Source: Sandaracinus amylolyticus
GTDB lineage: Bacteria > Myxococcota_A > Polyangia > Polyangiales > Sandaracinaceae
Assembly (NCBI RefSeq): GCF_000737325.1
Contig: NZ_CP011125.1
Coordinates: forward strand, 9,610,001 to 9,674,000
Length of the DNA: 64,000 bases
Direction of reading: 5' to 3'
Part shown: one piece after another, positions 44,485-62,290 of the stretch
Numbering within the stretch: the stretch's first letter is position 1
Layout: each line of letters begins with the position of its first letter
Made by a program: the position numbers and the translations under genes
Notes under the pieces: model-generated
The model's input: only the letters and a program-made list of their open reading frames with translations
Database searches by the model: none
Told to the model about the DNA's origin: nothing

Positions 44485-44755
44485 GTGCCTCCTGATGAGA
44501 GCCACGAACGCGACGCCCCGGGATTTCCAGGTCCCGTAAGCCGGCGGCGCTTGTAACACGGCGCCGTTTTCGCGTTCAAGAAGCGCGAGCCTAACATTCG
44601 ACGGGATTTCTCCGCGCCCCCCGCGCGTGCGATTCCGCCAGCGCATCGCACCCTTGAACACGACGCCCTCCGCGCGCGTCCTCCCCTCGCGCGGATGTGC
44701 CCGGCGTGTCGCGCTTGAACCCTCGGAACGTGCTGATATAAGAGGCATTCCGTCG

Positions 44756-45958
44756 ATGGGATTCACCCCTCTACCCATCACCGCCTGGAGCGCCGTCAAC
44801 GCGCTGGGCACCACGACGCGCGACGTGCTGGCCAGCCTCGACGCGGGCAGGACCGGTCTCGCCCCGCCGCCCTTCGAGCTGCCGTTCCCCACGTTCGTGG
44901 GCGCCACGCCGGACCCGCTCCCGCCGCTCCCGCGCGGTCAGGAGGCGTACGACTGCCGGCTCGCGCGGCTCGGCATGCTCGCGCTCGACGACGTGAAGGA
45001 CGCGGTGGATCGCTCGATCGCGCGCTGGGGCGCCAAACGCGTCGCGATCCTGATCGGGACCAGCACCGGCGGGCTCGACGCCACCGAGCTCGCGTTCCGC
45101 CACTGGGTCACCGAAGGCCGTCTTCCCGAGAGCTTCTCGCTGCGCACCCAGCACGGCTTCGACGCGCTCGGCGAGCTCTACGCGCGCGTGACCGGCATCG
45201 AAGGTCCGACCTACGTCGTGAGCACCGCGTGCTCGTCGAGCGGCAAGGTGCACGCGTCCGCGGCGCGCCTCATCCGCGCCGGGCTCGTCGACGCCGCGCT
45301 CGTCGGCGGCATCGACTCGCTCTGCCGCATGACGCTCCACGGCTTCAAGGGCCTCGGGATCCTCAGCGAGCAGCGGTGCCGCCCGTTCGCGAAGGGGCGC
45401 GACGGCATCAACATCGGTGAGGGCGCCGCGCTCATGCTCCTCGAGCGCGACGACGCGCATCAGGTCTCGGATCCGCTGCGCGTGCACCTGCTCGGCGTCG
45501 GCGAGTCGAGCGACGCGTACAACATGAGCTCGCCCGAGCCCCAGGGACGCGGCGCGCGCGAGGCGATGCAGCGCGCGATGGAGCAGGCGGGCATGCTCCC
45601 CGAGCACGTCGATCACCTCAACGCGCACGGCACGGCGACGCAGCAGAACGACATGTCCGAGTCGCTCGCGATCGCTTCGCTCTTCGGGGATCGCGTCCCG
45701 GTCGTGTCGACCAAGGGCTACACCGGCCATCTTCTCGGCGCCGCGGGCGCGACCGAGGGCGTGTTCGCGATCCACGCCGTGCGCACCCAGCGGCTCCCGC
45801 GCGCGCTCGGCTCGGAGGAGCTCGACCCCGAGATCCGCATCCAGGTGCCGCTCGAAGGCCCGGAGCGCTCGATCAAGCGCGTGCTGAGCAACTCGTTCGC
45901 GTTCGGCGGCAGCAACGTGTGCCTCGCGATCGGGATCCCGATGGAGCGCGTCTCGTGA
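44756..45958 (+). CDS. Beta-ketoacyl-ACP synthase of an aryl-polyene-like cluster
   Basis: A 400-residue ketosynthase (FabF/KAS II type) that condenses an acyl chain with malonyl-ACP. The ATG at 44756 is the first start giving an N-terminal KS pattern; the open frame upstream has no family match. The catalytic triad is complete: Cys159 (STACSSS), His291 (NAHGTATQQND) and His325 (KGYTGHLLGAAG). The end FAFGGSNVCL is also typical. Its stop overlaps the GTG of the next gene. Its neighbours, a KS-like chain-length factor, ACP and halogenase-like oxidoreductase, resemble aryl polyene or flexirubin pigment clusters. Confidence 0.9.
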   Translation: MGFTPLPITAWSAVNALGTTTRDVLASLDAGRTGLAPPPFELPFPTFVGATPDPLPPLPRGQEAYDCRLARLGMLALDDVKDAVDRSIARWGAKRVAILIGTSTGGLDATELAFRHWVTEGRLPESFSLRTQHGFDALGELYARVTGIEGPTYVVSTACSSSGKVHASAARLIRAGLVDAALVGGIDSLCRMTLHGFKGLGILSEQRCRPFAKGRDGINIGEGAALMLLERDDAHQVSDPLRVHLLGVGESSDAYNMSSPEPQGRGAREAMQRAMEQAGMLPEHVDHLNAHGTATQQNDMSESLAIASLFGDRVPVVSTKGYTGHLLGAAGATEGVFAIHAVRTQRLPRALGSEELDPEIRIQVPLEGPERSIKRVLSNSFAFGGSNVCLAIGIPMERVS

Positions 45959-46755
45959 GGCCGCTCTATCTCACCGGGATCTCGCTCTGGTCGCCGGGGT
46001 ACCGCGATCTCGCGGCGTTCGTCGACGACGCGCGCGATGCGAGCGTGACCGACTGCAGCGCGCGATGGGTGCCGCCGCGCCTGGCCCGCGGGACCTCGCG
46101 CCTCACGCGCATGCTCGGCGAAGCGGCCGCGGCGGCGTGCGAGGCGGGCGGCGCGGATCCCAGGACGGTCGCGACGATCTACACGTCGGGCTACGGCGAG
46201 ATCGAGACGATGATCGTCCAGCTGCAGACGATCTTCGCGGGCGACGGACAGCTCTCGCCGATGCGGTTCAAGAACAGCGTGCACAACTCGGCGAGCGGCC
46301 TCGGCTCGATCGGTCAGGGCAACCAGGGGTTCTCGACTGCGATCGCCGCCGGTGATCGCAGCGTCGAGGCCGCGCTGATCGAGACCTGGACGCTGCTCGA
46401 CGAGCGCGGCGGCGACGCGGTGATCAGCGCCGCCGACGACGCGCTGCCGGCGCCGCTCGACGCGCAGTGCGCGCGCGAAGGGCTCGCGATCGGGCTCTGC
46501 CTCGCGAGCGAGCAGCCCGCGCGCGGCGCGCTCGCGATCCTCGACGGACTGCGCATGGACGACGAGGCGCTCCCGCTGCCCGACGCGTTCCGCGGCCGCG
46601 CGCTCTCGCGCGAGCTCGCGACGAACCCCGTCGCGACGGTGCTCCCGCTGATCGACGCGGTGCTCGAGCGTCGCGAAGGGCGCGTGCCGCTCGCGTTCGG
46701 CGTGGCGCGCCCGTGGTCGATGCACGTGCGCCCGCTCGCGCCCGTGCGTACGTGA
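45955..46755 (+). CDS. Ketosynthase-like chain-length-factor protein
   Basis: A 266-residue protein with the ketosynthase N-terminal fold but shorter than a full KS. Where a KS has the catalytic Cys, it reads FKNSVHNSASGLGSI, the form seen in chain-length-factor-like proteins of aryl polyene clusters (Ketoacyl-synt_2 type). No NxHGT or KxxxGH motif is seen, so it is not catalytic on its own. Its GTG overlaps the KS gene's stop (GTGA), and the two products probably form a heterodimer that sets chain length. It is followed 55 bases later by the flavin enzyme gene. Confidence 0.82.
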   Translation: MRPLYLTGISLWSPGYRDLAAFVDDARDASVTDCSARWVPPRLARGTSRLTRMLGEAAAAACEAGGADPRTVATIYTSGYGEIETMIVQLQTIFAGDGQLSPMRFKNSVHNSASGLGSIGQGNQGFSTAIAAGDRSVEAALIETWTLLDERGGDAVISAADDALPAPLDAQCAREGLAIGLCLASEQPARGALAILDGLRMDDEALPLPDAFRGRALSRELATNPVATVLPLIDAVLERREGRVPLAFGVARPWSMHVRPLAPVRT

Positions 46756-46810
46756 GACGAAGCCTGGACGGCCCGCGCGGCGCGACCCCAGAGATCGCCG
46801 ACTCCAACCC

Positions 46811-48031
46811 ATGCAGCACGACGTCATCGTGATCGGCGGTGGTCCCTCCGGGTCGACCACCGCGAACCTCCTCGCCCAGGCGGGCTTCCGCGTGCTGGTG
46901 CTCGAGCGCGAGGTGTTCCCGCGCTTCCACATCGGCGAGAGCCTCCTGCCCTGTGACCTCGAGGTGTTCCGCCGGCTCGGCGTCGATCCCGACCAGCACG
47001 GCTTCCTCTACAAAGCGGGCGCCGAGTTCCTCGACGAGCGCATCGGCGGCCACACCGAGTACCTCTTCGCCGACGCGCTGCCCGGCACCGCGGATCACGC
47101 GTACCAGGTCGAGCGCGCGAAGTTCGATCACGTGCTGCTCCAGCGCGCCGAGGAAGTCGGCGCCGAGGTGCACCAGGGCGAGCGCGCGCTCGAGATCGCG
47201 ATCGAGGCCGATCGTGTGCTCGTGAAGAGCGATCGCGCGAGCTACGAGGCGCGTTATCTCGTCGACGCGACGGGCCAGGACGCGGTGCTCGGCCGTCGCG
47301 CCAAGACGACGAAGCAGCTCGTCGACTTCGGTCTCGCCGCGACGTTCTCGCACTTCGAGGAGCTCGATCCCGCGATCGATCGCGAGCTCTGCGAGACGAC
47401 GAAGGGCAACATCAAGGTCCTCTTCGTCGACGACGGCTGGTGCTGGGCGATCCCGCTCGGCGGTCGTCGCATCTCGATCGGGCTCGTCTCGCGCCGCAAG
47501 GGCATCCAGAGCGCGTGGCTCGAGGAGACGATCGCGCGCTCCCCGTTCCTCTCGCGCGTCACGAAGGGCGCGACGCGCCACCGTCGCCCCGGGATGCTCG
47601 CGAGCTTCTCGTTCCACAACGAGAAGCAGCACGGCGCGCGATGGTCGTGCACCGGTGATGCGGCCTGTTTCCTCGACCCGGTGTTCTCGAGCGGCGTGTC
47701 GCTCGGCATGGTCGGCGCGTCGCACCTCGTCGACGCGCTCGTCGCCGCGCTGCGCGAAGGGCGCGAGGCCGATCCCGCGCTGATGGACGCGCACGCGAAG
47801 CACGTGGGGCACGCCTACGACGTCTTCGCGACGCTGATCAACAGCTTCTATCACACGGGTCTGCTGCACGGGCTCTTCTTCGCGCCCGAGCAGGACCCGA
47901 TGCTGCGCAAGGGGCTCACGAGCGTGCTCGCGGGCGACGTGTGGCGCGACGACAACCCGTTCCAGCAGAAGCTCATGAGCAGCAAGCGCCGCGTGATCTC
48001 GCTGCCGCCCACGGTGAACGGTCCGGCTTGA
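46811..48031 (+). CDS. Flavin-dependent halogenase-fold oxidoreductase
   Basis: A 406-residue FAD enzyme. The dinucleotide motif is GGGPSG (residues 9-14), the next motif is FPRFHIGESLLP, and a WxWxIP motif is seen at residues 210-215 (GWCWAIPL), the mark of the flavin-dependent halogenase family. A later GDAACFLDPVFSSGVSLG segment binds FAD. It is shorter than tryptophan halogenases (about 520) and closer in length to phenolic halogenases and geranylgeranyl-reductase-type enzymes. Xanthomonadin-like pigments carry bromine, so halogenation of an aryl head group is possible; simple oxidation is the alternative. The lysine needed for hypohalous acid activation could not be identified. Confidence 0.82.
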   Translation: MQHDVIVIGGGPSGSTTANLLAQAGFRVLVLEREVFPRFHIGESLLPCDLEVFRRLGVDPDQHGFLYKAGAEFLDERIGGHTEYLFADALPGTADHAYQVERAKFDHVLLQRAEEVGAEVHQGERALEIAIEADRVLVKSDRASYEARYLVDATGQDAVLGRRAKTTKQLVDFGLAATFSHFEELDPAIDRELCETTKGNIKVLFVDDGWCWAIPLGGRRISIGLVSRRKGIQSAWLEETIARSPFLSRVTKGATRHRRPGMLASFSFHNEKQHGARWSCTGDAACFLDPVFSSGVSLGMVGASHLVDALVAALREGREADPALMDAHAKHVGHAYDVFATLINSFYHTGLLHGLFFAPEQDPMLRKGLTSVLAGDVWRDDNPFQQKLMSSKRRVISLPPTVNGPA

Positions 48032-48193
48032 GAGCCGTCCGAATCGGCTCGGCCACGGAGAGCCCTCCCGTCCGCGTGCTGCGCACGCTCCCGTGCGGGC
48101 CCTCCGAGGCCGAGCACTCCTGCTGGCACTGAGTTGCAACGCCGCCCCGATGGGGCCACTGTTGCGCGCTTTTTCACGTCGGGGACGCGTCAG

Positions 48194-48454
48194 ATGAGCG
48201 AACTGGAACAGCAGATCAAGGAGCTGATCGTCGAGGCCCTGATGCTCGACGACGTGCGTCCCGAGGACATCGACAGCGACGCGCCGCTCTTCGTGACCGG
48301 CCTCGGCCTCGACTCGATCGACGCGCTCGAGCTCGCGATGGCGATCGACAAGAAGTTCGGCGTTCGCATCCGCGCCGACGACGAGCAGAACAAGCACATC
48401 TTCGCGAACGTGAAGAACCTCGCGGGGTACGTGCAGCAGCACAAGTCGAAGTGA
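48194..48454 (+). CDS. Acyl carrier protein
   Basis: An 86-residue ACP. The phosphopantetheine site is Ser41 in GLGLDSIDALELA, with the usual acidic helix II after it and a hydrophobic helix before (IKELIVEALML). Position 48194 is chosen as the start because it gives the usual ACP length. It lies within the ketosynthase cluster and presumably carries the growing polyene. The next gene starts at a GTG overlapping its stop. Confidence 0.93.
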   Translation: MSELEQQIKELIVEALMLDDVRPEDIDSDAPLFVTGLGLDSIDALELAMAIDKKFGVRIRADDEQNKHIFANVKNLAGYVQQHKSK

Positions 48455-49023
48455 CGCGCGCGCTGCGCGTCGCCCTCGTCGTGCTCAACGCGATCCTGGT
48501 GATCGCGTACCCGCTCGCGGTGTTCTACGGGCTGACGCACTTCGGCGCGCGCGCGGTCTCGATCATGGTGCTCGGGCTGATGGTGCCCGGGCTCGCGTGG
48601 CGGTTCCGCAAGGCCGATCGCGCGACGTTCTGGTCGGTGGTGCGGGTGCCCATCGCGATGCTGCTGCTGATCTTCGGCGGCATCGCGACCGACGATCGGC
48701 GCTTCCTGCTCGCGCTGCCGGTGATGATCAACGCGGTGCTGCTCGTGGAGTTCGGCAGCACGCTGCGCGCGGGCGCGACGCCGATGATCGAGCGCTTCGC
48801 GCGCATGCAGGAGCCCGAGCTCGACGAGGCGAAGCAGCGCCACTGTCGCCAGTGGACCTGGGCGTGGTGTGTCTTCTTCCTGCTCAACGGCGGCACGGCG
48901 GCCGCGCTCGCGCTGCTGGCACCCGTCTGGTGGTGGACGGTCTACACCGGGGGCCTCGCGTACGGGCTGATGGGCCTGATGTTCGCGGCCGAGTACCTCG
49001 TCCGCCGCCGGAAATTCGGGTGA
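48451..49023 (+). CDS. Polytopic membrane protein (COG4648-like)
   Basis: A 190-residue inner-membrane protein with about five hydrophobic helices (VALVVLNAILVIAYPLAVFY; AVSIMVLGLMVPGLAW; VVRVPIAMLLLIFGGIA; RRFLLALPVMINAVLLVEF; WCVFFLLNGGTAAALALLAP). It ends WWWTVYTGGLAYGLMGLMFA. It starts with GTG inside the end of the ACP gene. The size, helices and position next to ACP and KS genes resemble a membrane protein found in aryl polyene clusters, probably involved in moving or anchoring the pigment. The 'gyrase inhibitor' annotation used for this COG is not supported here. Confidence 0.75.
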   Translation: MTRALRVALVVLNAILVIAYPLAVFYGLTHFGARAVSIMVLGLMVPGLAWRFRKADRATFWSVVRVPIAMLLLIFGGIATDDRRFLLALPVMINAVLLVEFGSTLRAGATPMIERFARMQEPELDEAKQRHCRQWTWAWCVFFLLNGGTAAALALLAPVWWWTVYTGGLAYGLMGLMFAAEYLVRRRKFG

Positions 49024-49060
49024 GGCGCGGCCGGGATCGGCGCGCCGGGAGCCGGACACG

Positions 49061-49380
49061 GCCCCCGGAGCGCTCGAGATCGCGCGTCGGGATCCCGGAA
49101 TCGACCCCCAGAGCGTTCTGCGAGTCGTTTCCGAGGGTTGGACACGTCCTCCCGAACGCTCGGGGGGAACTGTCCGGATCTCGGAATCGTCCCCCCGAGC
49201 GCTCGGGGGGAACTGTCCGGATCTCGGAATCGTCCCCCCGAGCGCTCGGGGGGAACTGTCCGGATCTCGGAATCGGTGCCCCGAGCGCTCGGGGGGAACT
49301 GTCGGCGACCCGGACGGGAGCGCCCGAACGTTCGGTCCGTCGAGTCCGGGACCCGGACGAGCGATCGTGTTCGCTCTGGG
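49061..49380. repeat. 43-bp tandem array built on a 20-bp palindrome
   Basis: Units recur every 43 bp with palindrome centres starting at 49148, 49191, 49234, 49277 and 49320; units at 49191 and 49234 carry the perfect CCCCCCGAGCGCTCGGGGGG. The rest of each unit is GAACTGTCCGGATCTCGGAATCGT-like. More diverged copies lie at 49061 and 49102, and another near 49358. It fills the gap between two convergent genes and could terminate transcription from both sides. There is no spacer diversity, so it is not CRISPR. Confidence 0.8.
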
Positions 49381-49383
49381 GCC

Positions 49384-50745
49384 CTATTCCGACTGGAAGA
49401 GCGCTCTCAGGGACTCGCGGCGGAGCTTGCCCGTGCCGGGGTCGCGCGGGAGCGCGTCGACGATGCGGATGCGCCGCGGGATCACCACCGGATCGAGCCA
49501 CGGCAGGAGCGCGGCGCGGATCGTCTGCGCGGTGTGATCGGGCGCGACGACCGCGGCCCAGCTCTCCCAGCCGCGCGCACCGCCGACCTCGATCGCGAGC
49601 GCGGCCGCGTCGGACACGCCGGGGATCGCGAGCAGGCGCGCCTCGAGCTCCGCGATCGACACGCGCGTGCTGCCGACCTTGAGCACTCCGTCGACGCGAC
49701 CGAGGTGGTGGAAGCGCCCTTCGTCGAGCACCGCGACACGATCGCCGCCGACGTACGGGCGCGACACGCCGGGGTCGAGGAACGGCGAGTCGATCAGCAT
49801 CCGACCGCCCTCGCCTTCGCGCACCTTCACGCCCTCGAGCGGCGTCCACGGCGCCCCGGCACGATCACGCCACGCGATGCCGCCGGTCTCGCTCGAGCCG
49901 AGCACCTCGGTGACGCTCCACCCGAAGCGCTCGCGCAGATCCTCGGAGGTGTCGGCGGGCAGCGGCGCGCCCGAGCTGAAGACGCGCGCGACGCCCTCGA
50001 TGCGGCCCGGCTCGAGCACGCGCAGCGCGCGCAGGTGCGCGGGCACGCTGACGAGCACGCGCGTCTGATCGCGCGCGATCAGCTCGGCGAGCGGCTCGGC
50101 GTGGAGCACGGTCTCGCGCGCGAACGACGCGCCCGACACCAGCGGCACCAGCACGCCGAAGAGCAAGCCGTAGATGTGGTGCGGCGGCACCGTCGCGAGC
50201 ACGCGATCCCCGCGGCCGATCGCGAAGGTGCGCGCGAGGGTGCGCGCTTCGCCGACGAGCTGGCCCGCGGTCTTCGGGCACGCGGTCGGCGCACCGGTGG
50301 TGCCCGACGTGTAGACGACGACGATGCGGCGATCGCTCGCGAGCGGCGCGGGCGGCGCGTAGACCTCGCCGTTCGGCTCGGGGCGCGACGCCACGATCGC
50401 GCGCACGTCGAGGCCCGCCATGTCGTCGACGTCGTGCAGCACGGTCTGCACGGTGCCGCTCTTGCGCAGCGCGGTGACCATCGCGGGCTGCGCGTTCGGC
50501 GGCAGCGCGACGACGTAGCCGCGCTCCCACGCCGCGAGCATCGACGCCGCGAACAGATAGCGATCGTGGCAGACGAGCACGAGCTCGCTGCGCCCACCGC
50601 GATCGCCGCGCCCGAGCTCGGGCAGGTGCGCTGCGATCGCGCGCACGTCGGCCCAGAAGCGCGCGGCGCTGCGGGGCTCGGGACCGGTCGTGACGGGGTC
50701 GTGCGCCTGATGGCGTCCGAGCAGCGCCGGGAGCGAGTGGGTCAC
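49384..50745 (-). CDS. AMP-dependent acyl/aryl-CoA ligase (ANL superfamily)
   Basis: A 453-residue adenylating enzyme. The phosphate loop is VYTSGTTGAPTACPKT, followed by FSSGAPLP, SSETGGIAWR, the Asp-containing YVGGDRVAVL and the hinge region GRVDGVLKVGSTRVS. The C-terminal catalytic Lys is in DPGTGKLRRESL. It is shorter than typical CoA ligases (about 520) and resembles the ligase of aryl polyene clusters, which activates an aryl starter acid. The GTG at 50745 gives the usual start; the open frame upstream is Arg-rich. It converges on the KS-ACP operon across the 43-bp array. Confidence 0.88.
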   Translation of the reverse strand: MTHSLPALLGRHQAHDPVTTGPEPRSAARFWADVRAIAAHLPELGRGDRGGRSELVLVCHDRYLFAASMLAAWERGYVVALPPNAQPAMVTALRKSGTVQTVLHDVDDMAGLDVRAIVASRPEPNGEVYAPPAPLASDRRIVVVYTSGTTGAPTACPKTAGQLVGEARTLARTFAIGRGDRVLATVPPHHIYGLLFGVLVPLVSGASFARETVLHAEPLAELIARDQTRVLVSVPAHLRALRVLEPGRIEGVARVFSSGAPLPADTSEDLRERFGWSVTEVLGSSETGGIAWRDRAGAPWTPLEGVKVREGEGGRMLIDSPFLDPGVSRPYVGGDRVAVLDEGRFHHLGRVDGVLKVGSTRVSIAELEARLLAIPGVSDAAALAIEVGGARGWESWAAVVAPDHTAQTIRAALLPWLDPVVIPRRIRIVDALPRDPGTGKLRRESLRALFQSE

Positions 50746-50849
50746 GGGACGCGCGAACCATAGCAGGCGCGCGCGACGCGCCACGTGCCCGCACGCACGG
50801 CGACGCATCGGCACAACACGCGCGCAGACGAGCCGACATCGGGCGCTGC

Positions 50850-52090: not shown

Positions 52091-55000
52091 TCAGCGTGGT
52101 GTGATCGAGAAGAAGCGGATCTCGCCGGTGTTCGCCGTAACGCTGTCGATCACCCGGAGATGCCACGTCCCGTTCGCGCCGGGCGAGCCGAGGCGCAGCG
52201 CGCCCCGCCAAGTGAAGTCGCGCGCAGTGCTACTGCTCGGGCTCGTGAGCGTGCGTGTCGCGCCCGAGGGCGTGACGAGCACGACGCGCAGGTCGCCACG
52301 GCGCCGGTGCGCCACCTCGACCGCCACGCCCACCTCGATCGAGCCCTCGCCACCGATGACGTCGATTTCGGTCGTAACGCCGGTCGTGCTCGCATCGGGG
52401 ATCGCGAGTGCGAGATCGCAGCGACCGTCGTGCTCGATGCCGACCTCCTCCGCGAGCTCGCATCGATCGACGAACGTCTGTCCGTTCGTGCCGCACACCG
52501 TCGGGTCGGGCTCGCCGCGCCAGCACGCGTCGTCGCGCGCGGGCGCCGGCGCGCTCACGGCGAGCCACACCGTGGTGTGGTCGTTCGACGCGACGTCGTC
52601 CGAGGAGAGCGTGATGCCAATCTCGTGCTCGCCTTCTGCGCTCGGCTGCACGCGAATCGTGTACGCGACGCGCTCGCCCGGCGCGATCACGCGTGCGTCG
52701 AACCATGCGACGCCCGCCGAGTCGGGCGCCCATGCGGCGCCGACGACGTCGAGAATCGCGATCGACTTCGGCGTGGACACGAGGACGTTTCCGACCTCGG
52801 TGCCGACGGTTCCGACGTTCACGACCTCGAGCGTGATCGTGCGTACCTCGTCGATCACGCCCGTGGGCTGCGCGACCGACCCGAACGCGATGCGATCACG
52901 GGTCGGACCGTGGAGCTCGACGGCACGACCCCACACGACGCCATTGGTCCACGTCGACATCCACGACGACGCCGACGACGCGCTCACCGGCGTGCGCAGC
53001 ACGAGCCGCAGCGACGGAAGGGACGCCCCGGGCGCGACGGCGCTCGAGTGGACGCACACGACGCTCGTCGCAGCGCGACACACCCACCCAGCGCCCGCGC
53101 TCGACTCGAGCACGAACGGAGCGGGCAGTGCGTGCTCGAACACGACCCCGCTCCCCTCGCTCGTGCCGTCGTTCGTGACCACGACGTCGACGGCGAAGGG
53201 CTCGCCTCCGGTCGTGGAGCTCGGGCTCGAGACCGTCGCGCGGAAGAGCGGCGCGGTCGCGTCGGCGATCACGGTGATCCGACCGCTCGCCGAGAGCCCG
53301 GAGGGATCGCGGACCGCGTAGTACACGGTGTCGCTTCCCGCCGACGCGCGCGAGCGATAGGAGCACTCGCTCTGCGCGCAGCGGATGTCTCCCATCGACG
53401 GAGTGAGCGTCGTGACGGTGAGCGGGTCTCCGTCCGGGTCGCTCGCGTTCGAGAGCACGTCGAGACGCACCGCGCCGAACGGCGCGACGCGCACGACGAA
53501 GTCGCGCGCGCTCGGCGCGCGGTTCGTGTCGATCGACACGCTCACGCGCGCCCGCGCGCGGAGCCCGTACGCGTCGGTGATCTCGTACTCGAACGAGTCC
53601 TCGCGAACGTCGCTGCGCGTCGTCGAGTACTGGCACTGGCCAGCGGGATCGCACGCCACGGTGCCGTGCGCGGGCTGCGTCCACGACACGACACGGAGCG
53701 CATCGCCGTCATCGTCGCGATCGTTCAAGAGCACCCGCACGGACCCGATTCGCTGAACGACCGCGATCGCATCGTCGGCGGCGCTCGGCGCGCGATTGCC
53801 GCGCACCGTGCTCGTGGTGGTCGCTTCGCGACCCGACGTGGTGCGCGCGAACGCGGTCACCTGGTGTGTCCCGCCCGGCACGCTCGGAAACGTCGCGCGG
53901 AAACGGCCCGAGCCATCGAGCGTCGCGAGCACGCGCTGATCCCCGAGCGCGAGCTCGACCTGCTCCACGTGATCTCGCCCGTCACGGTCCGTCCAGGGCA
54001 GGAACGGGATCGCGGGCGCAGCCCAGTCGATCGTCTGACAGCGCCCTCCGGTCGCGTCGGTGATGTGGCGCAGCGGGCTCGATGGATCGCACTCCGAGAT
54101 CGCGTCGATCGCGCCGCGATCGAGCAACGCCTCGATCGCGGGCGTGAAGTCGTCGCGACAGATCGACGTCCGGCGGCCTCCGGTGATGCTGGCTATCTCG
54201 TAGAGATTCGCCGCGCGACCGAACGGCGCGAGCTGCGTATCGCACGGGGACGACTCGGGACGCCCGGGCGCGCCCTCGGGGGCGATCACGTGCACCTCGG
54301 CGGCACGACCGAAGACGCGATCGAGGTCGTGAAGCACCGTGACGACACCGAGGGGCCTCACGTCGTGATCGGTCACGACGAGCACGCGCAGCGCGCTGTC
54401 GCGTCGTGCCCACGCCGCGAGCTCGAGCTGCCGCGAGCTGATCGCGCGCATCGGAGACTCGCCGCCGAACGAGTGCTGCAGATGTGTCGCGCGCGGATCT
54501 GCGCTCAGGGCCGTGCCGGCGAGCCAGCTCTCACCCGACACCAAGAGGACGCGCGTGTGCGCCTCGTTCGACGCTGCGAGAATCGTCATCGCGCGCGCGA
54601 GCGCCTCGCGCGCGCGACCGAGCCGGTCGTCGACGATGATGACGAGATCCAGCGCCGCCGGCTGCGCGGCTCGTCCGACGCCGTGCACGACCGTGCCGGC
54701 GCGGATGGCCGCGGCGAGCGGCGAGTCGCCATCCTCGCTCACGTGATCGCGGCCAGACGACACGAGGTACGCGACGCGTCGTCCTTCGGGCTGCGCCGCG
54801 AAATGCGTGTTCATCGCGGCGAGCACGTCGTCGTACGTGAGTTGCGCGTTCTCGACCCGGCACGTCATGCCCGCGCTGGGCAGTGGCGCGAACGCCGTGG
54901 AGCGGCCGCCGTAGCCGGAGTCGGAGCACGCGGTGGTCGCGACGAGCGCGATCGTCTCGTCGGGATCGGCGAGCCCATCCGCGTCCAGATCGGCCGCGGG

Positions 55001-58000
55001 TGTGGTGACCGACTGCACGCCCTCCGCGGGCCCGACATCCTCGATGAAGACGCTCGGGATGTAGGGTTGCGACGGCGCTCGGTGCTGCATGTCGGCGCCG
55101 AACGTCATCACCGAGACATCGAGCTCCGGCACGTCTCGCAGCCCACGCACGAGCGCGACCGACTGGCACCGTGACAGGTCGAGCGATCGCGAGACGTCGC
55201 AGAACGCGGGATGGACGGCGCGCGGCGCCCAGTCGGGTGGAACCTCGCGCGCCGCGCGTCGCGTCAGCCCGCGGCGGGTACGGCGATCCGCGGATGGCAG
55301 CGAGAGCTGATCGACGATCGCGAGCGCATGCACCGGACCGTCTAGCGCGACGTCAGCAGCGACCGACCCGACGATCTCGAGGGATCCGCCTTCCGGCACG
55401 ACCAACGCGCTCGGCGACGTCTCGATGCGGATCGCCGGCGGTGCGATCGGAGGAGCCGCGGCGACCGGAAGCGAGGTCGGGATTGCCGCGAGGGCGCGCT
55501 CGGGGCCCCAGCTCGGGTGTCGACCGCGCGCGATCAGCCGAGGCACTCCGCCCTCGACGGGAAGCGCGAAGATGCCGTGCTCGAACGGCAAGAAGACGGT
55601 GCCGAGGATCCGACGGCGATGACGCCAGTTCTCCGGCTTCCGCGCCGGGTCCTCCACGAACCCTTCGCGCGGCCCGCGCTCGAACGCGATCCAGCGGCCG
55701 TCGGGCGAGAACGTCGGACGACCATCGGCTTCGCCGCGCACAGCGTGCGTGAGCAGCCGCTCGGTGCCATCGGTCAGCGACCGCAGCACGATCCCATCGT
55801 CGGTCGCGAACGCGACGCAGCTGCCATCGGGGGAGTACTCGGGCGCCGTCTCACGACGCCCGGCCGCGTCGGTCAGTCGTCGCGGCTCGCTGGTCGGGCT
55901 CCAGGTGCCATCCGAGCTGCGCTCGACGTCGATGGTCCAGATCTGCGCGGGCATGCCGCGCTGAAACGCGATCTGCCGCGCATCGGGCGAGAACGCGGGT
56001 TGCAGCGCGAGCGCGTCGACGTCGTTCTGACGGTCGATGTCCCACGGCAACAGAGCCGACCCGCTGACGGGAAGCGTCATGGAGCCGCCGAGCACGACTG
56101 CTCCACCGTCGGCCGAGTACGCGCCAGAGCCGAGAGATTCCGGCCCCCCGACATAGCGAGTCGACAAACGGCCGTCGGGCTCACGCCGATCGAGCGAGAC
56201 CTCGTAGAGGGTCTCGGTGTCGCGAGTCAGGACTGCGAGCACACGATCGCCGGTCGGCGAGAGCGTCGTCTCCGAGGCCCACGCGAGGCGCTCCGTGCCC
56301 GCGAAGCTGCGCGCGAACGGGACCTCCTCGCGGATCCGCCGCGCGAGGTCGAGCAGCTGCACGCGAGGCATGCGCTCGCCGTCGTCCGTCGACTCGGGAT
56401 CGTGGAGCGGCCGACAGTCGGAGTCCGGTGGACACGCAGAATACACGAGCGTGCCAGTCAGGTCCCAATCCGACTCGTGCACGTCGATGCTCGTCGACTG
56501 CCACACTCGGCGGGTGTCGTCGGTTCGCGCCGAAACGGAGATCGGCATCACTCCGTCCTCGTCGGGCCCCGCCGCGACGCGCGCGGTGATCGGAGGAAGT
56601 GTAGCCCCCGGCTCGAGCGCGCCGGCATCGGCTCGACGGCAGGTCGCGCTGCCCCAGCGCGCGTCACACGACCAGCCGTCGCCACCCACGCTCTCGACGA
56701 CGACGAGCGTCTCGCCGCGGAACAGCTCGACCTCGATCGCACGCGCGACGAGCGGAGATGAGCTCGTGCTGCTGACCGCGACGGCGACATCGAGCGCGCT
56801 CGCTTCGTGCACGCTGGTGCGCGACGTCGTGAGATCGATCGCGAGCGGCGCTGGGGGAAGATGATCCTCGGCACGCTCGCGCATCGTGGGGCCCCAGGGC
56901 TGATGCACGTCGTACAGCCGGTCGTGCACGACGTCGTTGCTCGCGTCGACGTCGCCCGGAACGCGCACCACGACGTCGATCGGCTGGACGCGATCCGCAT
57001 CGAGCTCGACGCGCAAACGGATCGGGAGCACGACGCCACGCCGCTGCATCGCCGGGAGCCCTTCGGCGCGCGTGCAGGTCAGCACTGGATCCGCGAGCAC
57101 ACAGCTCCAGCCCTCCGGGACGCTCGATTGCCCGGTGAGCGCGACCGTCGGATCGAATCGGACGCCGGGCGGGAGCGTGAGCGCGACCTCGATCGGACCC
57201 AGCGTCGGGGCGTCGCCGACGTTGCGTAGATAGACGTCGTAGTGCCAATACCCGCCCTGGACGGGCTGGTGGTACGACCGATAGACCTGGTTCGGCGGCG
57301 CCGGAGGCGCGTCGAGCACCTCCGTCCCATCGCCGTAGTCGGTTCCACCCGACGCGGGGATCAGCGTGTTGATGCGTCGCCCCGGCCGGAACGGGTACTC
57401 GTAGTCGTACCACAAGCCATCGGACACGCCGGAGAGCCGGAATCCGGGATCGGCGAGCGAGGGGTCCCGATCCACCGCACGAACATCGCCAGCCCTCACC
57501 GAGACATCGACTCCGCGCGTCCAGGTCGGGCCGGAATCGCGCGCCGCGTCGATCGAAGCACCGGAGTCGGAGACTGGCGTCCCGCCGTCGAGATCGGGCT
57601 GACCCGCGTCGAGCTCACCGAACGCCTCCGCGCGCACGGTCACGCGCAAGAGCGGCAGTGCTTCGCCCGAGACGATGTGCGTGTCCGAGTGCGCGCAGTC
57701 GATCGAGTGCGCGTCCGTGGTGCAGCGCCAGCCGTCGCCGGACGAGGCCTCGACGGTCTCGCTCGAAGGAAAGGCCGCGCTCACCGTGGCAGTCCCGTAG
57801 AACGTGCCGACTCCGACGTTCTCCACACGAACGACGTAGTCGGCAGCCGCGCCCGGCGTCAGCGCGTCGGGTGGCGTCGTGGTGATGCGCAGGTCACCGG
57901 GCGCATCACGGCGCACCCGGACCAAGATCGGCGCGAGCGTCACGCCCGCAGGAACTTCGGCTTCGCGATGACAGGTGATCGCGTTCACTCGCGCCGCGCA

Positions 58001-61000
58001 CGCGAACGCGTCGCTCCGCACCGACACGACGAGGTGCGCGTCGGGCCACGCGAGCTCGACGTGCACCGGGCCCGGATGAGGTCCGGTACCGTGGTTCGTG
58101 CCGGTGATGCGATATTCGCCCTCCTCGCCTGGTGCCAGCGAAGCGGGACCGTCGACGTCCAGGCGCCAGTCGCTCGATACGACCGCGCCGCGACGCACGC
58201 GCGCACGCACGACGATCGGAGCCGCGCTCTCGTTCCCCGGCAGGGCGTCGCGCACTTGATCGCAGCGCAGCGAGCTCGCGACGTGCACGCACGACCAGCC
58301 GGGCCCACTCGCGTCGAGGATGTCGAGCCGCGCGTCGAGCGTGGTCTCCACCGCGAACGGGGCCTCTACCACGCCGCTCGAACGATTGGTGACGTCGACC
58401 GCGCCCGAGAGCTCGGCGCCCGGTGCCACACCCTCGGGATCGAGGTCGCGCGCGACCACGTCGAGCGCGCTCACGGCGAGGCCCCACTCGACTTCGTCGT
58501 TGCGGTCGTCGACGTCGCCTGCGGCGGTGAGGCGCGCGACGGCGATCGCTTCGTAAGAGCCTTCTCCGCGATCGGCCGCGCCGACGATCAATCGAACTGC
58601 GGTGCTCCAGTGCGGCTCGATGATCAGCGAGTCGGCCGTACAGCGCGCGGCGGCGTCGACCATGGTGCACGCGAGATCTTCGGCGTGGATCTCATGAATC
58701 GAGATCCCCGCGGGCATCGTGATCGCGAGATCGACGTCGCCACTGGTGGAAGTGCCGCCGACGTTCGTGATGACCGCTTCGACCTCCGCAGTCTCTCCGA
58801 TCTGGATCGCATCCGGAAGAACCGTTCGCAGTGCGAGGTCAGCGCCCGCCGGGCGCGGCGAGCGAACGGTGATTCGACTCGAGGATTGGCTCTGATTGCC
58901 GGCGCTGTCGGTTGCGGTGACCGTGATGACGTGTTCGCCAGCGGAAAGCTCCGACACATTCACGTCGGGAGATCCGGTCCCGAGGAGACCGTCGCGGTCC
59001 GACGACCAGACGAGTGCTCGAGCTCCGAGGCCATCGTCTTCTCGATCGAGCGCGTACGCGCGGAAGTGAACAGTCTCGTGCCGTCCAATCACGGCATCGG
59101 CGCGAGGCTCGATGATGGATGCAAACGGCGGTTGGTTCGGAACGACGAATCCGTCGGAGACGACGGCAGTCGATGAGAAGCCGTCGCTCACGCTGACTCG
59201 AAGGCGCCCGTTCGAGCTCCCGTGGAGGTAGCGGAACGGAACGTGGAACGTCTCGGTGGACGGGCCGACTCCGACGACCTGCCAGCGTGTACCGTCTGGA
59301 CTGTACTCGAGGATGGCAGTCAGTGAATCGTGGTCGGCGTCGGACGCGTCGAGCTGCACGCGCGCTGCCGACGATGACGTCGTGACCCGCAGCTGCGCCG
59401 AAGGGACGTTCGGGCTCGCCTCGAGGGTACCGAGCACGTGTCCCCCTCGGACGATGTGGACCCGCTGCGCATCGGGAAGAACGGGCACGAATGCGGCGAA
59501 GATCGACGGCGCGTCATCGCCCTGTTCTTCGGGCTCGATGAGCGGCACTCCGCCTTCGAAGAGCACGGTGCCGTCCGACGCCTCGATCCTCGCGCTGGTG
59601 CCATCGGGATCCAACGCGGTGATACGGGTGACGTGGCGGTCGCGGTGCACGGACGGAAGGAATACGACATGGCCGCTCTCATCGACCCATCCGGCGATCA
59701 AGCGGCGCGGGCTCGGCACGGCATAGGGTGGCTCGAGCGGCGAGAAATCTGGCTTCGACTCGTCACAGGGCTCGAGGAGGTCCCATTCGACCGGTTCCCA
59801 AGGAGCTCGCGTGAATCGAGCGATGTTGTCGCCATGCGCGCCGCCTTCCACGGGACGCAGCAGTCGCTCGTACTCGAACCACGACGTCCATCTCGCGGGC
59901 GCCGAGCAATAGCTCATGTAGTCCCATGCATCGCCGGTAGCGTGGATCAGGCCCTCGCGGAGGTCACAGCCGAAAATCTCGCGGTCGAGGCCTTGGGTGA
60001 GCGGGCCGAGCGCCGGTCTGAGCTGCGGATTCGCCCACGCAGGATCGTCGAGGCCGGCCGCTAGGAACATCCAGGGGTACGGCTCGGGACACGCACTGGC
60101 GCGCTGCGGCGTCATGCAGAAGTTCACGTGATGGCGGCCCAACGCGTGACTGAGCTCGTGTGCGGCCGTGGTCGTACTGTTCATGCTGAACGTGGCGACA
60201 CCGTCGGCGCCCACGCCTGCGGCGACGTCGCGGGCCTCCGCGGAGACCGCCGCGACGACGACACCGACGTCGCAATTCGCAGCGTCACATTCGTACTGGC
60301 GCAAGTAGTACGCATACGTGTGGACGAGGTGCAGGTAGTTCGCGTCGTTCGCGTTCATGCCGAGCCCCGGGAACGCAACCGCGCGTGGCGTGCGGAGCTG
60401 CGCGGTCCGCATGTCGTATCGCTCCTGGCCAGAAGAGACGGGCAGGATCTCGGTCGCGAATCCGATCACGTTCCACCACTCATCCGTCTCGGGCACGTCG
60501 AGCTGTGGATGACCGGTGTCGAATCGCAGCGGCGAGATCGCCAGCATCGGCCCGTCGTGCCGCACGAATGACAGTCGAGCCCGACAGTCCCCCGGCACGC
60601 CGGGAGTCTCGGCGTCCGCATGCTCGCGGCATCGAAGCTGTCCCCCGATCAGCGCAGCCTCGATCTCGATGTGTCCACGGAGCCATTCCGCCGGTAGTCG
60701 GAAGTGGAGTGGAAATGCGTATGCTGCGCGATGTGCGCGGCCGGCGACGCGAGGGACGGCGGCGTCCTGCGTCCCAATCATCGGCGCGAACGTCTCGACC
60801 CGGTCGCACGGAGCCGGTGCGGGCTCACTGCATCGATACCCGTGGAGTCGCACCGTGACGGTCGGTCCGTGCGCCGCGCTGCTCCGCTGCCGCTCCTCAC
60901 GCGAGAGCTGCATGAACAAACGCACGAGTGTCGCCTTGCCTTCGATCAATGGCACGGTGTTGTGCCAATCCTGGATGATCTGATTGGCTTCGATTGCCGC

Positions 61001-62290
61001 GAGCTCGATGTCGGGGATGATGCAGGACCCGAATCCCCGTTCCCACGACTCGGGATCATCGCCCACCACCATCCGCCCGTTCGTGAGTCGAGTCGCCGCG
61101 CCCCACTGCGAGACTGCGCGGGCGCCAGTCACGGCCGCCGGGAACGGCTCCAGCCGGAGCTGATTCGTCGCGACCGCATCGAGCTCCAGCGTGATGGGTT
61201 CATCGACCTCCGAAGAGACGTAGCGCTGCGCGATGAAGCCGTCCGAGCTCGCTTCGGCGTCGAAGATGCCGGGCACGTCGACGGCTTCGTTGATCGCGTC
61301 GACGATTGCGACTGCGACCTGATCAGCCCCCCACCGCGGGTCGAGCGCGATGGTCAGGTCGCGCGCCACGGGCACCTCGTGGAGGCCGTCCCAGCCACGC
61401 CAACGGAGGCGGATTTCGGACGGCAGATCGCCCTCGGAGGTCCAGTGGACTCGCGTGAGCAGGTCGACTGGCTGCGCCCATTCTCGGTCCGATTCGACAG
61501 CAACGACCGAGACGCGATCGATCGGATTGCTCAGCTCGCGCGCGGACGCAAACGCCACGGATGGCGCGAACGCCTCCCTGGGGTAGTTGGGTACGTAAGG
61601 CCGTGTGTGGCCGAGGTCGGTGCGCGCGTTGGGCATCCACAGCGGATCGAGACGGCCGACGGCCAGGCAGATCTCTTGGCGTACCTGCGGCAGGGCGCGT
61701 TCCCCGATGTGCTCCGCAGCGACGTGGAACCCCCAAGCGGGATCTGCAGGTGGGGTGCACTCGCCCCCGGGATAGCCAGGCAGGCATTGATCCCGCGCGG
61801 GCGGCAGGTGGCGCACGACGGGCAGATCGAGCGCTCGGATCTCCGCGATCAACGCTGCTCGCGCCTGCGCGCCGCGGATCACCCGGTACGGGATCGCGAC
61901 ACGGCTGCCCTCGAGGTGCTCCACGCCGTCCGAGTCGGACGACATCTGGCCGACCGTCGCGAGCACGACCGATACGGCGACGCTTCCGTCGACCGGAAGA
62001 TAGGACGCAATCGCGTTGATCAAGCCCTCGCGCTGCAAGGCCCACGGTCGCGGGCCACCGCTGCGGCAACGATAGGATGCGAAGAGAACCTCCGGGGGCC
62101 CGTCGGGTACGCAGTCTTCCCCTTCGGATGCGCCAGGATGGAGGACGAACGCAATCTGCCGAACGGGTCTGCCCGCCTCACGGCCCGCAGCGGAGGCACT
62201 GGCAACGTCTGCGTTCGTCGATGTGCACGCGCTCCACCACAACGAGAACGCGGAGAAGGATGTCGCTATCCAACGGGATCGCCGAGTCAT
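52091..62290 (-). CDS. Giant multidomain lipoprotein with metzincin-type site
   Basis: A 3399-residue predicted lipoprotein (signal ends LWWSAC). A zinc-protease site HELSHALGRHH (His711, Glu712, His715, His721) is followed by a Met-turn-like WDYMSYCSAP near residue 790, the metzincin pattern. After it come beta-rich modules: a PKD/Ig-like domain (about 1050-1140), DUF11-like repeats (about 1140-1600 and on to about 1900), a TolB/PD40-like propeller (about 1980-2210: SPTGDRVLAVL, FSPDARQIAFQ, YSPDGSCVAFA, FSPDGRWIAFE), and VWA-like regions (about 2250-2680). Cadherin-type NRAPSAxDD repeats (about 2840-2990), a Kazal-like module (VCGTNGQTFVDRCELAEE, about 3255-3285) and a proprotein-convertase P domain (about 3295-3399) end it. 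It probably degrades proteins outside the cell. Confidence 0.88.
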   Translation of the reverse strand: MTRRSRWIATSFSAFSLWWSACTSTNADVASASAAGREAGRPVRQIAFVLHPGASEGEDCVPDGPPEVLFASYRCRSGGPRPWALQREGLINAIASYLPVDGSVAVSVVLATVGQMSSDSDGVEHLEGSRVAIPYRVIRGAQARAALIAEIRALDLPVVRHLPPARDQCLPGYPGGECTPPADPAWGFHVAAEHIGERALPQVRQEICLAVGRLDPLWMPNARTDLGHTRPYVPNYPREAFAPSVAFASARELSNPIDRVSVVAVESDREWAQPVDLLTRVHWTSEGDLPSEIRLRWRGWDGLHEVPVARDLTIALDPRWGADQVAVAIVDAINEAVDVPGIFDAEASSDGFIAQRYVSSEVDEPITLELDAVATNQLRLEPFPAAVTGARAVSQWGAATRLTNGRMVVGDDPESWERGFGSCIIPDIELAAIEANQIIQDWHNTVPLIEGKATLVRLFMQLSREERQRSSAAHGPTVTVRLHGYRCSEPAPAPCDRVETFAPMIGTQDAAVPRVAGRAHRAAYAFPLHFRLPAEWLRGHIEIEAALIGGQLRCREHADAETPGVPGDCRARLSFVRHDGPMLAISPLRFDTGHPQLDVPETDEWWNVIGFATEILPVSSGQERYDMRTAQLRTPRAVAFPGLGMNANDANYLHLVHTYAYYLRQYECDAANCDVGVVVAAVSAEARDVAAGVGADGVATFSMNSTTTAAHELSHALGRHHVNFCMTPQRASACPEPYPWMFLAAGLDDPAWANPQLRPALGPLTQGLDREIFGCDLREGLIHATGDAWDYMSYCSAPARWTSWFEYERLLRPVEGGAHGDNIARFTRAPWEPVEWDLLEPCDESKPDFSPLEPPYAVPSPRRLIAGWVDESGHVVFLPSVHRDRHVTRITALDPDGTSARIEASDGTVLFEGGVPLIEPEEQGDDAPSIFAAFVPVLPDAQRVHIVRGGHVLGTLEASPNVPSAQLRVTTSSSAARVQLDASDADHDSLTAILEYSPDGTRWQVVGVGPSTETFHVPFRYLHGSSNGRLRVSVSDGFSSTAVVSDGFVVPNQPPFASIIEPRADAVIGRHETVHFRAYALDREDDGLGARALVWSSDRDGLLGTGSPDVNVSELSAGEHVITVTATDSAGNQSQSSSRITVRSPRPAGADLALRTVLPDAIQIGETAEVEAVITNVGGTSTSGDVDLAITMPAGISIHEIHAEDLACTMVDAAARCTADSLIIEPHWSTAVRLIVGAADRGEGSYEAIAVARLTAAGDVDDRNDEVEWGLAVSALDVVARDLDPEGVAPGAELSGAVDVTNRSSGVVEAPFAVETTLDARLDILDASGPGWSCVHVASSLRCDQVRDALPGNESAAPIVVRARVRRGAVVSSDWRLDVDGPASLAPGEEGEYRITGTNHGTGPHPGPVHVELAWPDAHLVVSVRSDAFACAARVNAITCHREAEVPAGVTLAPILVRVRRDAPGDLRITTTPPDALTPGAAADYVVRVENVGVGTFYGTATVSAAFPSSETVEASSGDGWRCTTDAHSIDCAHSDTHIVSGEALPLLRVTVRAEAFGELDAGQPDLDGGTPVSDSGASIDAARDSGPTWTRGVDVSVRAGDVRAVDRDPSLADPGFRLSGVSDGLWYDYEYPFRPGRRINTLIPASGGTDYGDGTEVLDAPPAPPNQVYRSYHQPVQGGYWHYDVYLRNVGDAPTLGPIEVALTLPPGVRFDPTVALTGQSSVPEGWSCVLADPVLTCTRAEGLPAMQRRGVVLPIRLRVELDADRVQPIDVVVRVPGDVDASNDVVHDRLYDVHQPWGPTMRERAEDHLPPAPLAIDLTTSRTSVHEASALDVAVAVSSTSSSPLVARAIEVELFRGETLVVVESVGGDGWSCDARWGSATCRRADAGALEPGATLPPITARVAAGPDEDGVMPISVSARTDDTRRVWQSTSIDVHESDWDLTGTLVYSACPPDSDCRPLHDPESTDDGERMPRVQLLDLARRIREEVPFARSFAGTERLAWASETTLSPTGDRVLAVLTRDTETLYEVSLDRREPDGRLSTRYVGGPESLGSGAYSADGGAVVLGGSMTLPVSGSALLPWDIDRQNDVDALALQPAFSPDARQIAFQRGMPAQIWTIDVERSSDGTWSPTSEPRRLTDAAGRRETAPEYSPDGSCVAFATDDGIVLRSLTDGTERLLTHAVRGEADGRPTFSPDGRWIAFERGPREGFVEDPARKPENWRHRRRILGTVFLPFEHGIFALPVEGGVPRLIARGRHPSWGPERALAAIPTSLPVAAAPPIAPPAIRIETSPSALVVPEGGSLEIVGSVAADVALDGPVHALAIVDQLSLPSADRRTRRGLTRRAAREVPPDWAPRAVHPAFCDVSRSLDLSRCQSVALVRGLRDVPELDVSVMTFGADMQHRAPSQPYIPSVFIEDVGPAEGVQSVTTPAADLDADGLADPDETIALVATTACSDSGYGGRSTAFAPLPSAGMTCRVENAQLTYDDVLAAMNTHFAAQPEGRRVAYLVSSGRDHVSEDGDSPLAAAIRAGTVVHGVGRAAQPAALDLVIIVDDRLGRAREALARAMTILAASNEAHTRVLLVSGESWLAGTALSADPRATHLQHSFGGESPMRAISSRQLELAAWARRDSALRVLVVTDHDVRPLGVVTVLHDLDRVFGRAAEVHVIAPEGAPGRPESSPCDTQLAPFGRAANLYEIASITGGRRTSICRDDFTPAIEALLDRGAIDAISECDPSSPLRHITDATGGRCQTIDWAAPAIPFLPWTDRDGRDHVEQVELALGDQRVLATLDGSGRFRATFPSVPGGTHQVTAFARTTSGREATTTSTVRGNRAPSAADDAIAVVQRIGSVRVLLNDRDDDGDALRVVSWTQPAHGTVACDPAGQCQYSTTRSDVREDSFEYEITDAYGLRARARVSVSIDTNRAPSARDFVVRVAPFGAVRLDVLSNASDPDGDPLTVTTLTPSMGDIRCAQSECSYRSRASAGSDTVYYAVRDPSGLSASGRITVIADATAPLFRATVSSPSSTTGGEPFAVDVVVTNDGTSEGSGVVFEHALPAPFVLESSAGAGWVCRAATSVVCVHSSAVAPGASLPSLRLVLRTPVSASSASSWMSTWTNGVVWGRAVELHGPTRDRIAFGSVAQPTGVIDEVRTITLEVVNVGTVGTEVGNVLVSTPKSIAILDVVGAAWAPDSAGVAWFDARVIAPGERVAYTIRVQPSAEGEHEIGITLSSDDVASNDHTTVWLAVSAPAPARDDACWRGEPDPTVCGTNGQTFVDRCELAEEVGIEHDGRCDLALAIPDASTTGVTTEIDVIGGEGSIEVGVAVEVAHRRRGDLRVVLVTPSGATRTLTSPSSSTARDFTWRGALRLGSPGANGTWHLRVIDSVTANTGEIRFFSITPR

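What the first reader, a model, noticed from the sequence alone, without database searches (positions are those of the whole stretch)
52091..62290. 3399-residue lipoprotein protease combining metzincin, propeller, VWA-like, Kazal and P-domain modules
A HExxHxxGxxH site with a following Met-turn-like segment sits near residue 711 in a protein otherwise built from adhesive modules. The combination of a protease, an inhibitor-type Kazal module and a C-terminal P domain in one lipoprotein is unusual and suggests a self-controlled surface protease for prey.
Basis: partly seen in the sequence, partly recalled or inferred. Interest (0 to 1): 0.68.

Follow-up and report, generated by a model that had tools for sequence, protein, structure and literature searches.

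The report
Giant StcE-like surface zinc protease
A soil myxobacterium encodes a single 3,399-residue predicted outer-membrane lipoprotein that carries an intact zinc protease, distantly related to the bacterial mucin-cutting enzyme StcE, in front of a long string of binding modules; the protease belongs to a widespread family that public libraries do not yet recognise, but the module-string design itself is a familiar one.

Summary
One uninterrupted ORF (minus strand, 62290-52091, 3,399 aa, on a single 10.33 Mb contig) has HELSHALGRHH at 711-721 and a Met-turn (YMSYC, M792). The zinc site lies in a metzincin fold: an AlphaFold model of residues 424-962 matches StcE (3ujz) over the whole Ig-metzincin-Ig unit (VIA Z 13.8, 353 residues), ahead of adamalysins (Z ~11, metzincin only). 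By sequence the core is M66-related (profile-profile E 8.5e-20 to myxococcal M66 proteins), but no Pfam or NCBIfam model reaches its cut-off. It sits in a separate clade with Myxococcota, Actinomycetota and Verrucomicrobiota members. The N-terminus is a VWA domain with a broken metal site.

A colinear homologue in another Myxococcota MAG rules out an assembly fusion. Its tail is EGF repeats, not Kazal + P, so the tail is a swappable cassette. The Kazal module is a weak, two-disulphide serine-protease-inhibitor type; nothing supports it restraining a zinc protease.

Best reading: a surface-tethered, active zinc endopeptidase with substrate-binding modules, probably against (glyco)proteins of matrix, prey or rivals. 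New variant of a known kind; moderate interest. Substrate, activity and the VWA-like region at 2310-2760 are untested.

The parts
52091..62290 (-). whole gene, 3,399 aa predicted lipoprotein
62225..62290 (-). signal peptide with lipobox LWWSA-C22 (residues 1-22)
   Evidence: sequence; PROSITE rule from memory
61022..62161 (-). N-terminal VWA domain (44-423), DUF1194-like, metal site degenerate (H51-P-G-A-S in place of D-G-S-G-S)
60566..61021 (-). N-terminal Ig-like domain of the protease unit (424-575), motif IEANQIIQ
59801..60565 (-). metzincin catalytic domain (about 576-830)
60128..60160 (-). zinc motif HELSHALGRHH (711-721)
59906..59923 (-). Met-turn DYMSYC (790-795)
59405..59713 (-). C-terminal Ig-like domain of the protease unit (860-962)
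58856..59404 (-). two Ig/PKD-like domains (963-1145)
   Evidence: sub-threshold PKD, Big_13; conserved in L021
56486..58843 (-). DUF11-type repeats, each with a Cys pair (about 1150-1935)
55436..56473 (-). TolB/PD40-type beta-propeller (about 1940-2285)
54011..55363 (-). VWA-like region, one or two copies (about 2310-2760)
   Evidence: similarity to L021; no Pfam hit, so tentative
53267..53797 (-). two Big_9/cadherin-like domains (2832-3008)
52556..53251 (-). DUF11-type domains (3014-3245)
52418..52525 (-). Kazal_2 module with four of six cysteines (3256-3291)
52100..52333 (-). P domain (3320-3397)

Best explanation
A surface-tethered, catalytically competent zinc endopeptidase of the metzincin clan, distantly related to peptidase M66 (StcE). 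The protease is packed between two Ig-like domains as in StcE and preceded by a VWA domain that has lost its metal site and probably only binds protein. The 2,400 residues behind it form a long stalk of DUF11, Ig and cadherin-like modules with a beta-propeller and a VWA-like region, ending in an exchangeable tail (here Kazal + P). Lipidation of Cys22 would anchor the protein to the outer membrane; the modules would hold polymeric or cell-surface substrates while the protease cuts exposed (possibly glycosylated) proteins. Shown: intact catalytic signature, predicted fold, homology, colinearity with a homologue. Inferred: anchoring, activity, substrate class.
For: All catalytic and structural signature residues are kept. 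The model's best match is StcE 3ujz by Foldseek (E 1.5e-5) and by VIA-align (Z 13.8, rmsd 5.7, 353 residues across the whole unit), with adamalysins next (Z ~11, metzincin only). hhalign of the four closest rows against myxococcal proteins, three of them above the Pfam M66 cut-off: probability 99.2, E 8.5e-20, colinear. A profile of the family finds such proteins in whole genomes (E down to 1e-44). Tree: the window groups with L021, L010, L011, L007-L009 (95/95), apart from the M66 group. L021 is colinear from the VWA to the last DUF11, so the architecture is inherited as a unit. N-terminus: the listed fold matches are dominated by VWA and integrin I domains, best Z 13.2.
Against: Model confidence is moderate (mean pLDDT 67, pTM 0.65), and the N-terminal model is low overall (46.5). 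No curated family model reaches its cut-off on the core. The StcE alignment has high rmsd (5.7) and 12% identity. The tree joins the window and L021 by long branches. The lipobox has Trp at -3. No expression or activity data.
Confidence: 0.72

Rival explanations
1. One reading: a surface protease for prey that is held in check by its own Kazal module.
For: Kazal_2 reaches its cut-off when scored alone; the protease signature is intact; myxobacteria of the suborder are reported as predators (PMC5010890).
Against: Kazal modules inhibit serine proteases by a canonical loop, not zinc proteases (general knowledge); the module has four of six cysteines; it lies about 2,500 residues from the active site; the colinear homologue has EGF repeats there; the same module type is used elsewhere in the genome.
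Confidence: 0.05
2. A strict O-glycoprotease (mucinase-like) working as StcE does, cutting next to O-glycans.
For: Closest solved fold is StcE over the full Ig-metzincin-Ig unit; other O-glycopeptidases (Amuc_1438, OgpA, CpaA) are in the same list.
Against: Glycoproteases cannot be assigned from sequence homology (stated in PMC7542363). Adamalysins, which are not glycan-dependent, match nearly as well on the catalytic domain alone. Glycan-contact residues were not compared here.
Confidence: 0.25
3. A non-catalytic adhesin whose protease domain is only a binding module.
For: Most of the protein is adhesive modules; the VWA metal site is lost; two aligned relatives (L015, L020) have Gln in place of the first zinc His.
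Against: In this protein every catalytic and Met-turn residue is present.
Confidence: 0.1
4. Assembly or annotation fusion of two genes.
For: GC3 is slightly lower over the first 1,200 residues than after.
Against: Single-contig genome, no stop or frame break, colinear homologue spanning the joint in an unrelated assembly.
Confidence: 0.01

Closest known systems
StcE (peptidase M66), structure 3ujz
   Same: Ig-like domain, metzincin catalytic domain with HExxHxxGxxH, C-terminal Ig-like domain in the same order
   Different: 12% identity; window core not recognised by the Pfam M66 model; has a Met-turn Met where one paper says M66 lacks it (PMC7518263); embedded in a 3,399-aa modular lipoprotein instead of a secreted enzyme
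Myxococcal M66-type lipoproteins of 500-700 aa (three in this genome)
   Same: homologous over Ig + metzincin + C-terminal domain
   Different: separate, fully supported clade; short, without the stalk modules
L021, about 2,690-aa ORF (open at the contig end) of Deltaproteobacteria MAG M1802
   Same: colinear VWA-Ig-metzincin-Ig-DUF11-propeller-VWA-like-cadherin-DUF11
   Different: VWA metal-site Asp kept (DGTAT); tail of EGF repeats in place of Kazal + P; lacks part of the second VWA-like region
L010, Salsipaludibacter albus (Actinomycetota), 1,008 aa
   Same: VWA (Pfam DUF1194 2e-15) directly before Ig-metzincin
   Different: short, with Ig-type domains behind and none of the long stalk

Membership tests
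Metzincin clan | HExxHxxGxxH zinc motif | tested here: met
   HELSHALGRHH 711-721, conserved in relatives
Metzincin clan | Met-turn after the motif | tested here: met
   M792 in 20/21, Y794 in 21/21 rows; the turn's geometry was not measured
Metzincin clan | metzincin fold | tested here: met
   AF2 model matches StcE and many adamalysins/ADAMs, Z 9-14
Metzincin clan | bound catalytic zinc and peptidase activity | not testable with these tools
   needs purified protein
Peptidase M66 | Pfam PF10462 score above its cut-off | tested here: not met
   no hit on the protein or core; the genome search gives only the three paralogues
Peptidase M66 | Ig-catalytic-Ig order of StcE | tested here: met
   VIA-align covers model 5-539
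Peptidase M66 | homology to M66 members by profile | tested here: met
   hhalign E 8.5e-20; but separate clade in the tree
Peptidase M66 | mucin/O-glycoprotein cleavage | not testable with these tools
   no assay
VWA domain (DUF1194 type), N-terminal | VWA fold | tested here: met
   best Z 13.2 to VWA/I domains; low overall pLDDT; blastp to L010 E 4e-5
VWA domain (DUF1194 type), N-terminal | MIDAS DxSxS | tested here: not met
   HPGAS at 51-55
Kazal inhibitor | Kazal_2 score above cut-off | tested here: inconclusive
   19.7 bits in whole protein, 23.6 in tail alone, 26.4 in genome search; cut-off 22.8
Kazal inhibitor | six cysteines, three disulphides | tested here: not met
   four Cys: 3256, 3266, 3277, 3291
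P domain (P_proprotein) | Pfam PF01483 above cut-off | tested here: met
   44.6-50.7 bits vs 21

The most novel reading that the evidence does not exclude
The core belongs to an unrecognised sister family of M66 metzincins, found here in six phyla, in which a VWA or propeller domain directly before the Ig-metzincin unit selects the substrate; the giant form is a surface-tethered protease whose exchangeable tail sets the target.
Probability: 0.3. Interest if true: 0.55.

Novelty: new variant of a known kind. Interest (0 to 1): 0.42.

Why it matters
It links a large, uncurated group of bacterial zinc proteases to the StcE/M66 glycoprotease fold outside animal pathogens and gut symbionts. Enzymes of that fold are used as tools for glycoprotein analysis, and environmental relatives with other specificities could be useful. 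It also shows that the catalytic unit is inherited together with a long, ordered set of binding modules, with only the tail exchanged.

Tried and rejected
Assembly fusion: rejected (single contig, colinear homologue). Kazal self-control: rejected as the main reading. Pfam for the core: only sub-threshold Reprolysin_4 (E 0.004 for the core); NCBIfam none on the window's core. Isolated Pfam scans of residues 2310-2560 and 2546-2770: nothing, so the second VWA-like region rests on similarity to L021 and on the look of the sequence. Operon partners: downstream genes are a ketoacyl-synthase/FAD-halogenase-like/ACP/AMP-ligase set, and the next gene upstream (from 63367) runs the other way; no functional link was seen. 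The VWA-type N-terminus as a common partner in Myxococcota: only 2 of 377 genomes. The StcE sequence itself was not fetched, because it lies on a virulence plasmid; only the fold match was used.

Full report
What is there. The finding's interval is one ORF on the minus strand, ATG at 62290 to stop at 52091, 3,399 aa without interruption. Codon-position GC is that of coding DNA throughout (third position 0.75-0.89). The window lies at 9610001-9674000 of a single-contig 10,327,335-base genome; the size fits the 10.33 Mb genome of Sandaracinus amylolyticus DSM 53668 (PMC5010890), a match by size only.

The protease. HELSHALGRHH is at 711-721. Searches of Myxococcota with the core gave three relatives, and a scan of 84,980 species' contigs with their alignment gave 22 loci in Verrucomicrobiota, Planctomycetota, Chloroflexota, Actinomycetota, Pseudomonadota and Myxococcota. 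Aligned over the core (21 rows), Glu712, His715, His721, Gly774 and Tyr794 are invariant, Met792 is kept in 20 rows, His711 in 19. They share an N-terminal signature [AG][IL]E[VA][NT]Q..Q before the catalytic domain. No Pfam or NCBIfam model reaches its cut-off on the window's core, and no model is a consistent strong hit across the 21 members.

Fold. The AlphaFold model of 424-962 (mean pLDDT 67, pTM 0.65) is best matched by StcE, 3ujz: Foldseek E 1.5e-5, well ahead of the next rows; VIA-align Z 13.8 over 353 residues spanning both Ig-like domains and the protease. Adamalysins and ADAMs follow at Z 9-11 on the protease alone.

Family placement. A profile of the 21 rows finds many 500-700-aa myxococcal proteins (192 of 377 genomes have some match at E <= 0.001, though many are weak); three of those tested are above the Pfam M66 cut-off. 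Profile-profile comparison of the closest four rows with six such proteins gives E 8.5e-20. In the tree the window sits with L021, L010, L011 and L007-L009 (95/95), apart from the M66 group, which is itself fully supported. Branches are long and the window-L021 pairing (89/84) could be drawn by that, but it is independently backed by colinearity. The core is therefore M66-related and built like an StcE-type metzincin, but it is not filed as M66, because the family model does not score it.

The rest of the chain. Residues 44-423 fold as a VWA domain (best Z 13.2; low overall confidence) and are related to a Pfam-positive DUF1194 VWA in L010 (E 4e-5) and to L021 (E 1.4e-11). The metal-site residues DGSGS are HPGAS here. 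Behind the protease come Ig/PKD-like domains, DUF11-type repeats, a TolB/PD40 propeller, a VWA-like region (unproven), two Big_9/cadherin-like domains, more DUF11-type sequence, a Kazal module and a P domain.

Unity of the gene. L021 aligns with the window colinearly from residue 44 to about 3108, with propeller, cadherin and DUF11 models hit in the same order; it then goes into EGF repeats. The order is inherited, the tail is exchanged. A lipoprotein in a genome of the same family ends in a Kazal-like cysteine-rich stretch plus a P domain (Pfam confirms the P domains but names a pacifastin module, not Kazal). The genome has eight P-domain hits in about six ORFs and seven Kazal_2 hits in five ORFs. 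The full VWA-led form is rare: 2 of 377 Myxococcota genomes, and the sampled congener lacks it.

Mechanism. Most likely a surface-held zinc endopeptidase whose modules bind polymers or cells. Shown: frame, catalytic signature, predicted fold, homology, architecture. Inferred: lipid anchoring, surface exposure, activity, substrate. Kazal control is not supported: wrong protease class, incomplete cysteine set, absent from the colinear homologue.

Verdict. A real, well-formed protein. Its length and combination are unusual, but mixing such modules is ordinary in myxobacteria (general knowledge). The more interesting part is the uncurated metzincin family.

Noticed in passing
L015, L020, L023 (QE..H at the first zinc ligand): Some Chloroflexota and Planctomycetota relatives have QELAH in place of HExxH, so they may be inactive or altered.
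   Followed up: partly
L109, L110, L111 (G000:C1 near 8705819, 8872074, 264004): Three shorter M66-type proteins in the same genome, above the Pfam cut-off.
   Followed up: partly
window 44627-50814: Ketoacyl synthases, FAD-dependent halogenase-like enzyme, acyl carrier protein and AMP ligase: a probable polyene or fatty-acid-type cluster beside the gene.
   Followed up: no
L108:2328-4379:-: Lipoprotein with two P-domain stretches and a pacifastin-type inhibitor module in a genome of the same family.
   Followed up: partly
L007, L008, L009: Verrucomicrobial members of the clade carry other N-terminal modules in place of the VWA; L007 has NHL propeller repeats.
   Followed up: partly
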